From the NCBI RefSeq assembly GCF_014837235.1, contig NZ_JACYFT010000003.1, positions 205,660-269,659 on the forward strand: a stretch of DNA of 64,000 bases, written 5' to 3'. Source of the stretch: Limnohabitans radicicola. GTDB taxonomy: Bacteria > Pseudomonadota > Gammaproteobacteria > Burkholderiales > Burkholderiaceae_C. The notes beneath the pieces were generated by a model that was given only the letters and a program-made list of their open reading frames with translations, did not search any database and was not told the origin of the DNA. Numbering within the stretch: the stretch's first letter is position 1; every line of letters starts with the position of its first letter. Shown in pieces: positions 19,388 to 22,375 of the stretch. The position numbers and the translations under genes were made by a program.

Positions 19388-22375
19388 TCAGCCCAGACGC
19401 TGAAGCTGCTCTTTCACCTTGGTCAGCGTCGCGGTGAAGTCGGCCACGCGTTTCTTTTCCTGCTCGATCACGGCAGGCGGTGCTTTGGCCACAAAGGCCT
19501 CATTGCCCAGCTTGCCGTTGGCTTTGGCGATTTCGGTCTCCAGGCGCGTGACTTCCTTCGCCAGTCGCACCTTTTCAGCGGCCACGTCCACTTCCATGAA
19601 CAGGCACAGGCGTGCTTCACCCACCACGGCCACAGGCGCGGCCTGGGCCGCGGCGACCCATTCGGCTTCGTTGTCAAAGACCTTGACCTCACTCAGCTTG
19701 GCCAGCGCTTGCAGTACAGGCGCAGCAGCCTGCATGAAGGCGGTGTCGCCCAGCACGTACATCGGCATGCGGGTGGCGGGCGAGACGTTCATCTCGCCGC
19801 GCAGATTGCGGCAAGCGTCCACCAAGGTTTTGAGTTTGGCGACATGCGCTTCGGCCGCTACGTCGATGCGCTCGGGCTGGCTCACGGGGTAGGCCGCGAT
19901 GCTGACCGACTCGCCCGGACGGCCTGCGACCACCGACACCTTTTGCCAGAGCTCTTCGGTGATGAAGGGGATGATCGGGTGCGCCAAACGCATGATGGTT
20001 TCGAGCGTGCGGATCAGGGTGCGGCGTGTGGCGCGTTTTTCAGCGTCGGTGCCGGTGTTGATCTGCACCTTGGCGATTTCGAGGTACCAATCGCAGAACT
20101 CGTTCCACACGAAGTCGTAGATCGTGTTGGCCACGTTGTCGAGGCGGTACTCGGCAAAGCCTTTGGCCACATCGGCTTCCACGCGTTGCAAGTGTGAGCT
20201 GATCCAGCGGTCGGCCTGGCTGAAGGACATGTAGCCGTGGGCTGGGCCGCCTACAGCGCATTCTTCTTTGGTGTGCTCTTTGAGGCCGCAGTCTTGGCCT
20301 TCGCAGTTCATGAGTACAAAGCGAGTGGCGTTCCACAGCTTGTTGCAGAAGTTGCGGTAGCCCTCGCAGCGCTTGCTGTCAAAGTTGATGCTGCGGCCCA
20401 ATGACGCGAGCGCCGCGAAGGTGAAGCGCAGTGCGTCCGCACCATAGGCCGGAATGCCTTCGGGGAATTCCTTTTCGGTTTGCTTGCGCACCTTGGGCGC
20501 GGTCTCGGGCTTGCGCAAACCTTGGGTGCGTTTTTCGAGCAGGGGTTCGAGCGTGATGCCGTCGATCAGGTCCACCGGGTCGAGCACGTTGCCCTCGGAC
20601 TTGCTCATCTTCTTGCCTTGGGCGTCGAGCACCAGGCCGTGGATGTAGACGTGTTTGAAAGGCACTTTGCCAGTGAAGTGCGTGGTCATCATGATCATCC
20701 GGGCGACCCAGAAGAAGATGATGTCGTAGCCGGTGACCAGCACGCTGCTGGGGAGGTAGAGGTCGTAGTCTGTTCCGCTGGCGGCAGTGGCACCGCCGGT
20801 CGTGCTCATACTCGCTGCGCTCGCCAAATCGCCCGATCCGGCGGCACCACTGCCGCCAGCTGCGTTGTCGCTGCTCCAACCCAGTGTGCTGAAAGGCACC
20901 AGAGCGCTGGAATACCAGGTGTCCAGCACGTCTTCGTCGCGCTTGAGTGTTTTTCCTGGGGCTTTGGCCTGCGCCTCGGCTTCGTTGCGGGCCACGTACA
21001 CATTGCCGTCTTCGTCATACCAGGCCGGGATCTGGTGGCCCCACCACAGCTGGCGCGAGATGCACCAGTCCTGGATGTTGTTCATCCACTGGTTGTAGGT
21101 GTTCACCCAGTTCTCGGGCACAAAGCTCACTTGGCCTGACTGCACGGCGTCGATGGCTTTTTGCGCAATGCTCTTGCCTGTGGCATCGCCTTTGCCCACC
21201 TGGTTCATGGCGACGAACCATTGGTCGGTCAGCATGGGCTCGATCACCTGGCCTGTGCGGGCGCAGCGGGGCACCATGAGTTTGTGCTTCTTCACTTCGA
21301 CCAAATGGCCTGCGGCTTCGAGGTCGGCGACCACGGCCTTGCGGGCCACGAAGCGGTCGAGGCCACGGTATTTCTCGGGCGCGTTGTTGTTGATGGTCGC
21401 GTCCAGGTTCAGCACGCAGATCATCTCCAGCTTGTGGCGCTGGCCGACTTGGTAGTCGTTGGTGTCGTGTGCAGGGGTGACCTTGACCACACCTGTGCCG
21501 AAGGCCTTGTCCACGTACTCGTCGGCAATCACGGGGATGGTGCGGCCGCACAGCGGCAGGTTGACCTGTTGGCCAATCAGGTGTTGGTAGCGCTCGTCTT
21601 CGGGGTGCACCATCACGGCCACGTCGCCCAGCAAGGTTTCGGGGCGGGTGGTGGCGACGGTCAATGAACCACTGCCATCGGCCAAGTCGTAGCGGATGTG
21701 CCACATCGAGCCGTCTTCTTCCTCGCTCTCGACTTCGAGGTCAGACACCGCGCTCATCAGCACCGGGTCCCAGTTGACCAGGCGCTTACCGCGGTAGATC
21801 AGGCCTTGCTCATACAGCTGCACAAAGGTTTCGGTCACGGTTTTGGACAGCTTGGGGTCCATCGTGAAGTATTCGCGGCTCCAGTCCACGCTGTCGCCCA
21901 TGCGGCGCATTTGGCTGGTGATGGTGCTGCCGGACTCTTCTTTCCACTCCCAGACCTTGCTCACAAAGTTTTTGCGCGCTTCGGCGGGTGTGGGGCCCAT
22001 GTCGTGGCGGCTGATCCCTTTGGCCTGCAGTTGGCGCTCCACCACGATTTGTGTGGCGATGCCCGCGTGGTCGGTGCCCGGAATCCAGGCGGTGTTGTGG
22101 CCCAGCATGCGGTGGTAGCGGGTCAACGAGTCCATGATGGTCTGGTTGAACGCGTGGCCCATGTGCAGGGTGCCCGTCACGTTGGGCGGTGGCAGCTGGA
22201 TGGCGAATGCGGGTGCGCCGTCTTTGGGCGCTTGCGTGCCCCGGAAACCGGCTACGCCGTAGCCACGTTTTTCCCATTCGGGGCCCCAATGGGCTTCCAG
22301 GGCTGCGGGCTCGAACGATTTGGACAGGCTTTCAAGGCCGGGCTGTTGGACCGGGGTAGCGGGTGCGTTGCTCAT
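19388..22375 (-). CDS. valS: valine-tRNA ligase
   Basis: Class I aminoacyl-tRNA synthetase, 995 residues. The HIGH motif appears as [16 protein letters not shown] near residue 53, the editing CP1 domain follows ([13 protein letters not shown]), the KMSKS motif is [10 protein letters not shown], and a C-terminal coiled coil ([20 protein letters not shown]) ends the protein. Between FSTLGW and [16 protein letters not shown] the protein has about 40 residues where the family has about ten. The excess is low-complexity Ala/Gly/Ser/Thr and is encoded by the 84-bp palindromic element at 20777-20860. Confidence 0.96.
20777..20860 (-). repeat. palindromic element inserted in frame in valS
   Basis: Two 23-base arms, 20777-20799 and 20838-20860, are inverted copies of each other with two adjacent mismatches, around a 38-base centre. 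Total length is 84 bases, exactly 28 codons, coding for residues 506-533. The translation is Ala/Gly/Ser/Thr-rich and sits in a surface loop of ValRS just after the editing domain where homologues have no such segment. It looks like an inserted palindrome (REP or RPE-like) that the host keeps as protein. Confidence 0.8.

What the first reader, a model, noticed from the sequence alone, without database searches (positions are those of the whole stretch)
20777..20860. 84-bp palindromic element inserted exactly in frame inside valS
Two 23-base arms with only two mismatches enclose 38 bases; the whole is 28 codons and codes for an Ala/Gly/Ser/Thr-rich loop (residues 506-533) at a site where ValRS homologues have about ten residues in all. 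The arms code for low-complexity residues and the element keeps the frame. This looks like a mobile palindrome domesticated as protein, similar in principle to the Rickettsia palindromic elements in coding genes. I know of no such element in Burkholderiales valS.
Basis: partly seen in the sequence, partly recalled or inferred. Interest (0 to 1): 0.75.

Follow-up and report, generated by a model that had tools for sequence, protein, structure and literature searches.

The report
Dispersed capped-hairpin element inside valS
A palindrome that adds a 28-residue loop to a bacterial valyl-tRNA synthetase is one copy of an apparently undescribed family of repeated hairpins that share a fixed tip but carry a different, still self-matching stem at most places where they occur.

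Summary
This genome has 5 further copies of the tip and 10 further covariance-model hits, mostly between genes. The tip is in 46 of 80 same-genus genomes. Of 29 same-genus valS genes fetched by protein search, 16 carry the insert and 13 do not. Copies also sit in frame in a radical-SAM protein and MmeI-like proteins. The architecture is unusual: a near-constant 26-nt cap on a stem of about 29 bp that is locus-specific yet complementary (valS: 87% of cells pair, 25-39% when slid). Stem mispairs are lopsided (242 A.C, 53 G.T on the cap's top strand), so one strand, the valS coding strand, seems to be the one kept foldable; one neighbouring pair of clusters shows no such bias. Most likely an old non-autonomous mobile hairpin, tolerated as a surface loop, its arms kept complementary by template switching or selection. 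Mobiliser, function and DNA-or-RNA action are unproven. It is not a GTAG/CGTC REP, and only RPE-like in behaviour.

The parts
19388..22375 (-). valS, valyl-tRNA synthetase, 995 aa, host of the element
20775..20861 (+). whole hairpin element, 87 model positions; the only covariance-model match in the window
   Evidence: 95.1 bits, E 1.6e-18 (this copy is one of the 12 the model was built from)
20777..20799 (+). left outer arm, locus-specific sequence (pairs with 20838-20860)
   Evidence: covariation at orthologues
20805..20830 (+). cap (type A), CTCATACTCGCTGCGCTCGCCAAATC; on the coding strand GATTTGGCGAGCGCAGCGAGTATGAG, read D-L-A-S-A-A-S-M
20814..20820 (-). GCGCAGC (GCGNAGC) motif on the coding strand; cap position 13 (20817) is its N
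   Evidence: the special stability of d(GCGNAGC) is recalled knowledge
20831..20836 (+). inner closing stem, pairs with 20800-20805 (one mismatch in this copy); 20837 is bulged
   Evidence: alignment
20838..20860 (+). right outer arm, locus-specific sequence
20773..20778 (+). left foot TTCCGC, shared with many same-genus copies
   Evidence: sequences printed
20859..20864 (+). right foot GCTGCG, shared with many same-genus copies
   Evidence: sequences printed

Best explanation
The valS segment is one member of a dispersed family of non-autonomous palindromic elements (here called capped hairpins) in Comamonadaceae. Shown: an element has about 87 positions, with short feet, a stem of about 29 bp whose sequence is specific to its locus, and a nearly invariant cap; elements occur singly, as inverted pairs and sometimes as direct pairs; several cap families exist; they lie between genes or in frame inside genes; the valS copy is present in some lineages and absent in others; the stem covaries; mispairs suggest that one strand (cap read GATTT...GCGNAGC...ATGAG, the coding strand in valS) is the one kept foldable. 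Inferred: an ancestral element entered the valS linker between the [11 protein letters not shown] and [10 protein letters not shown] segments and was tolerated as a flexible surface loop, because one frame of the cap codes small polar residues. Inferred: the arms stay complementary while changing because replication template switching copies one arm onto the other, possibly helped by selection for the hairpin; the cap resists because it is read, as sequence and structure, by an unidentified factor (a transposase or other binder of single-strand hairpins).
For: Other copies in the genome. Cap in 46 of 80 genus genomes, reversed control pattern in 0 of 80. valS presence/absence, 16 of 29. In-frame copies in a Radical_SAM_N/DUF3362 protein and in MmeI-like proteins. 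A two-hairpin composite in valS of G129 is 72% identical over about 260 bp (E 1e-28) to an intergenic copy of the same genome (valS identity of the place), which shows dispersal. Covariation: valS, 62 of 63 instances, 87.4% of cells paired against 24.8-39.2% slid by 1-3 columns and 66% after shuffling, 20 of 23 pairs with double changes; the 16 valS genes not chosen by cap give 89.9% against 78.4% shuffled, largest shuffle 81.8%. 22 loci: covariation score 0.544 against 0.199, 0 of 500 shuffles. Orthologues G129/G255: stem 25 of 45 identical, hand-picked ungapped linker pieces 48 of 55, cap 24 of 26. Strand bias 242 A.C to 53 G.T on the top strand, 151 of 165 instances. GCGNAGC on the coding-type strand in 70 of 76 further model hits, 0 of 76 on the other strand. 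In 16 of 16 of those valS genes the cap codons GCG AGC .. GCG AGT are unchanged, whereas 11 of 62 invariant-Ala and 11 of 32 invariant-Ser columns of the gene use a single codon.
Against: No recent transposition: among 161 instances only 8 cross-cluster pairs share an arm at 80% or more, 5 of them between the neighbouring clusters 1 and 4. No mobiliser found: PF01797 hits are in 76 of 80 genus genomes, with or without caps. No target duplication at the one clean comparison, whose polarity is open. Related stems that differ at only 1-2 of 23 pairs differ mostly by one-sided changes that break a pair (61-73%), which fits mutation followed by later correction but does not prove template switching. 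Not every measure is significant: the number of pairs with double changes was 27 against 25.2 shuffled (88 of 500 as high), and slide -1 gave 57.4% paired because part of the loci lack the one-base bulge. Clusters 2 and 6, also a neighbouring inverted pair, show no strand bias (9 A.C to 10 G.T, and none). Most caps were found by searches that require the cap; in the 16 valS genes not chosen by cap, mean identity is 0.889 for the cap and 0.758 for the stem. Arms swapped between loci still reach 20 pairs in 22% of 252 swaps.
Confidence: 0.62

Rival explanations
1. The elements are functional RNA hairpins (transcript processing, stability or regulation); the stem covaries because selection keeps the RNA fold; mobility is only ancestral.
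For: Tolerance of what would be G.U pairs on one strand, a GNA-type apical loop, covariation, cap more conserved than stem at orthologous loci.
Against: No Rfam match at gathering score in 8 loci, only weak sub-threshold hits in 6 loci. Members of inverted pairs point opposite ways, and the neighbouring clusters 1 and 4 each show the bias for their own strand (28:6 and 15:1), though clusters 2 and 6 do not (9:10 and 0:0). In this genome two copies between co-directional genes lie in opposite orientations, and one copy lies between divergent gene starts.
Confidence: 0.22
2. The elements are single-stranded-DNA sites (recombination, transposition or replication) recognised as an extruded hairpin of one strand, in the manner of attC sites or REP/RAYT hairpins, and are still in use.
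For: Strand bias, GCGNAGC motif, inverted pairs at similar spacing, changes with a breakpoint at the cap edge: a precise 33-bp difference in a radical-SAM gene and a one-sided deletion in G027.
Against: No associated recombinase identified; no match in the phage and plasmid collections (one 42-nt query) or in viral contigs (exact 24-nt pattern).
Confidence: 0.25
3. An ordinary old low-complexity loop that is palindromic by chance.
For: Ala/Gly/Ser-rich linker of variable length in relatives.
Against: Dispersed copies, covariation, other proteins with the same in-frame peptide.
Confidence: 0.02

Closest known systems
Rickettsia palindromic elements (RPE) and Wolbachia counterparts
   Same: Palindromic repeats between genes and fused in frame inside conserved protein genes (PMC2229807, passages seen; the Wolbachia report seen only as a reference title)
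   Different: RPEs are 105-146 bp with terminal inverted repeats; here about 87 positions, only cap and feet are shared and stems are locus-specific; other bacterial class
REP elements (GTAG and CGTC superfamilies) and their dimers
   Same: Hairpins, often in inverted pairs, intergenic and sometimes intragenic, including in tRNA synthetase genes; complementary stem changes between subfamilies (PMC3733652: abstract, part 1 of 4 of the Results, the distribution section and passages)
   Different: Stems of 5-13 bp and a GTAG or CGTC tag; here about 29 bp, no such tag, stems unrelated between loci
Template-switch (quasipalindrome-correction) evolution of inverted repeats
   Same: Arms of an inverted repeat made or kept complementary by copying one onto the other, also in coding DNA (PMC8794818 and PMC8604942, abstracts)
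   Different: Those abstracts treat RNA genes and single sites in yeast; here a dispersed family with a fixed cap
Coding palindromes of Nematomorpha mitochondria
   Same: Perfect inverted repeats inside protein genes (PMC6649704, abstract)
   Different: The abstract mentions no shared cap and no dispersed element

Membership tests
REP (GTAG/CGTC) | Unpaired GTAG or CGTC tag at one end | tested here: not met
   No GTAG or CGTC conserved at either end of 22 aligned loci; definition from PMC3733652
REP (GTAG/CGTC) | Short stem (5-13 bp) and family-conserved stem sequence | tested here: not met
   Median 27 arm-arm pairs in 161 of 165 instances; left-arm identity between clusters averages 0.42, within clusters 0.62
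REP (GTAG/CGTC) | Flanks or co-occurs with a RAYT gene | tested here: inconclusive
   PF01797 hits in 76 of 80 genus genomes, with or without caps; the one hit of this genome, C1:549614, is more than 180 kb from the two C1 elements
RPE-like in-frame palindrome | Inserted in frame in several conserved proteins, also between genes | tested here: met
   valS, a Radical_SAM_N/DUF3362 protein, MmeI-like proteins; intergenic copies
RPE (as a sequence family) | 105-146 bp with terminal inverted repeats | tested here: not met
   87-position model; arms not shared between loci. No RPE sequence was compared directly
MITE | Target-site duplication | tested here: inconclusive
   None at the only close pair with a clean difference, where insertion and loss cannot be told apart
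Known Rfam RNA family | Covariance-model match at gathering score | tested here: not met
   0 matches over 8 loci; only sub-threshold hits over 6 loci
attC-like single-strand recombination site | Cassette and integrase, recombination of the folded strand | not tested
   Only the single-strand bias was examined

The most novel reading that the evidence does not exclude
A new class of mobile hairpin whose identity lies in a structured cap (GATTT - GCGNAGC - ATGAG on one strand) and feet, recognised as single-stranded DNA, while the stem is free to be rewritten: each copy's arms are made or remade by copying one arm onto the other, so stems can turn over faster than neighbouring non-coding DNA yet stay paired. 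In protein genes this couples two peptide segments through complementary strands.
Probability: 0.25. Interest if true: 0.9.

Novelty: new variant of a known kind. Interest (0 to 1): 0.75.

Why it matters
It shows in-frame palindromic insertion in an essential gene in Comamonadaceae, far from Rickettsiales, with dozens of natural variants at one codon-resolved site. The coupled evolution of two arms around a fixed cap makes the question of how hairpin stems are maintained (selection or template switching) directly testable, and the strand bias points to an unidentified factor that reads a folded single strand.

Tried and rejected
Chance low-complexity palindrome: rejected. Assembly artefact: very unlikely. 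REP membership: rejected on tag and stem. Exchange of whole stems between loci: not supported, arms are hardly ever shared. RAYT as mobiliser: co-occurrence is uninformative. Empty sites at clusters 13 and 8: the intergenic regions were too diverged to define ends, apart from a one-sided deletion in G027. Phage, plasmid and viral sources: no match. AlphaFold of ValRS: mean pLDDT 52.1, too poor to use; the loop's place rests on the alignment with 1gax. Literature: six exact cap and peptide strings are in 0 held papers; the listings showed no title or abstract that describes this family.

Rows dropped: one search used 161 of 165 instances; one search used 62 of 63 valS rows; one search used 151 of 165 (short flank, N, or fewer than 17 of 23 WC pairs); could place the linker in 6 of the 21 loci (5 genomes). 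The 29 valS genes are those same-genus loci that handed out for its best matches, so they lean towards valS genes like this one. One search scored 29 candidates a genome, so its 18 of 150 is a lower bound. Crude end motifs: GATTT-like in 71 of 76, ATGAG-like in 44 of 76 (some cap families end CTGAG).

Full report
Observation. The two arm mismatches are A.C on the + strand and therefore G.T (G.U) on the coding strand, which folds better (DNA -37.2 against -33.1 kcal/mol; RNA z -7.5). The covariance model built later, which includes this copy, has it as its only match in the 64-kb window.

Copies. A BLAST of the element against its own genome finds the inner part at five other places with E of 6e-6 or better, and the cap pattern confirms them (4 forward and 2 reverse hits including valS). 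With up to 3 mismatches, 46 of 80 same-genus genomes have a hit; the reversed control pattern has none in any of the 80. In a family-wide sample 17 of 250 genomes have one. Named records with an exact 24-nt core include Limnohabitans, Rhodoferax, Hydrogenophaga, Polaromonas, Hylemonella, Comamonas and Ramlibacter, mostly MAGs, with several records named only at a wider level (93 stretches, 80 listed).

Architecture. 165 type-A instances fall by their flanks into 24 clusters, 15 with two or more members and 9 single (in the genus alone 105 instances and 12 clusters). Within a cluster the cap is nearly the same while the arms are specific to the locus. Arm-arm pairing has a median of 27 bp in 161 instances, 146 with at least 20; arms taken from different clusters give a median of 8, though 22% of 252 swaps reach 20. 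Across 22 loci in an ungapped 87-column alignment the covariation score is 0.544 against 0.199 shuffled, 0 of 500; the count of pairs with double changes alone is not significant (27 against 25.2, 88 of 500). Inverted pairs often have cap starts about 130-140 bp apart, with exceptions such as L113, about 500 bp; a few pairs are direct, as in L106 and L107. The first covariance model finds 11 matches in this genome, up to 27 in a relative, matches in 18 of 22 same-genus genomes, and none in 14 genomes of other families. A second model finds 12 here and matches in 18 of 150 family genomes.

Cap families. Model hits reveal other caps, such as CTCAGAGGCGCTTCGCTTTGCCACATC and CTCATCAGTCGCTTCGCGCCAGCAAATC. 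On the strand that is the coding strand in valS, 70 of 76 such elements (type A among them) carry GCGNAGC in the middle and 0 of 76 on the other strand. In type-A caps outside valS the position that varies freely is this N (T 72, G 25, A 1 of 98); the search pattern left T/G free there, so this is partly by design. That d(GCGNAGC) is an exceptionally stable DNA mini-hairpin is recalled; the listing shows papers that use GCGAAGC hairpins.

One strand. Non-Watson-Crick cells in the stems are 242 A.C, 53 G.T and 172 other on the cap's top strand (151 of 165 instances), and 56, 23 and 21 in 55 further hits. By cluster, 16 show more A.C, 2 more G.T, 5 are level, and 1 had no usable row. Instances are related, so the binomial p-value in that call is not a real probability. 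The neighbouring clusters 1 and 4, which point opposite ways, both show the bias (28:6, 15:1), but clusters 2 and 6, also neighbours, do not (9:10, 0:0). Cytosine deamination of an exposed strand is an alternative cause that I could not exclude.

valS. Of 29 same-genus valS loci fetched by protein search, thus not selected by the cap but by likeness to this ValRS, 16 carry the insert and 13 (L038, L043-L054) do not; L125 also lacks it. In 62 valS elements 87.4% of stem cells pair, against 24.8-39.2% when slid by 1-3 columns and 66% after column shuffles; 20 of 23 pairs show double changes. For the 16 alone: 89.9% against 78.4% shuffled, 9 pairs with double changes, mean identity 0.889 for cap and 0.758 for stem. 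In these 16 genes the cap codons GCG AGC .. GCG AGT never change while neighbouring codons change the amino acid (L/M/F/I, M/R/G), the reverse of what protein-level constraint alone would give. Some relatives carry an inverted pair in frame (L141, L149, L195, L235).

Other proteins. The same frame, DLASEASM or DLASAASM, occurs inside a Radical_SAM_N/Radical_SAM/DUF3362 protein (YgiQ-like, name recalled) and in MmeI-like proteins: L205 has four MmeI domains over their cut-offs, L164 only a sub-threshold MmeI_TRD, and the others of that cluster were not scanned. In the radical-SAM gene, sister genomes G338 and G352 differ by exactly 33 bp that hold the cap, without duplication; sequence matching both arms is present in both, and G257 and G351 lack it. 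Whether the cap was lost or gained there is open.

Dispersal and stem turnover. In G129 the composite element in valS and an intergenic one align at 72% over about 260 bp, E 1e-28, so the unit has moved or been copied. Between orthologous copies in G129 and G255 the stem is 25 of 45 identical, the linker pieces that align without gaps 48 of 55 (pieces chosen by hand; the linker also has an indel of about 20 nt), the cap 24 of 26 and the feet 21 of 22, with 28 and 26 WC pairs of 29. In this pair the stem has changed more than the linker beside it and yet stays paired. Same-cluster comparisons agree for many loci: in the valS cluster at 0.82 flank identity the stem averages 0.59 and the cap 0.92; clusters 2, 6 and 8 are exceptions whose stems (0.84-0.95) are as conserved as their flanks. 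Among pairs with 1-2 changed stem pairs, 12-19% of changes are already double and complementary, rising above 50% when 10 or more pairs differ. Template switching that copies one arm onto the other (PMC8794818, PMC8604942, abstracts) fits this; selection on the fold fits too.

Genomic sites here. Eight sites were read: between gltA- and leuC-like genes, between an mmsA-like gene and a GMC oxidoreductase, after an rpsT-like gene, between divergent pyrG- and coaBC-like genes, beside murB-like, beside a universal-stress gene, after mutL-like, and near a ruvC-like gene. A ninth, weak hit (C10:215419) overlaps an unassigned ORF. Gene names are my reading of the translations; no family search was run on them.

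Comparison. In proteins it works like an RPE; as a sequence family it is neither RPE nor GTAG/CGTC REP (membership table). In the 5.39 million held papers six exact cap and peptide strings do not occur.

Noticed in passing
L259 (G132), radical-SAM gene linker: The variable linker that holds the capped hairpin in G338 carries other in-frame palindrome-like repeats in a relative (gttcgccctgagc.../ttcgacaggctcagcccgaacgg and ggggtctgacccc); such linkers may be hot spots for repeats.
   Followed up: no
L068, L095, L111 (cluster 1): Elements whose left and right arms seem to come from two neighbouring hairpins and match poorly, with an intact or nearly intact cap: possibly recombination through the cap.
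   Followed up: partly
L299 (G027): Left arm kept; cap, right arm and downstream DNA deleted, with the breakpoint just after the first base of the cap.
   Followed up: partly
L222 (G129) and L221 (G255): Element pairs with unrelated stems and linkers upstream of a parA-like gene at what looks like the same junction in two species.
   Followed up: no
L109 (G097), valS: Part of an arm is tandemly duplicated in frame (NAAGGSGNAAGGSG).
   Followed up: no
L164, MmeI_TRD-bearing ORF: A second, degenerate copy of the cap peptide (GADFWAFDSMRPP) lies upstream of the intact one (GADLASEASMRP).
   Followed up: no
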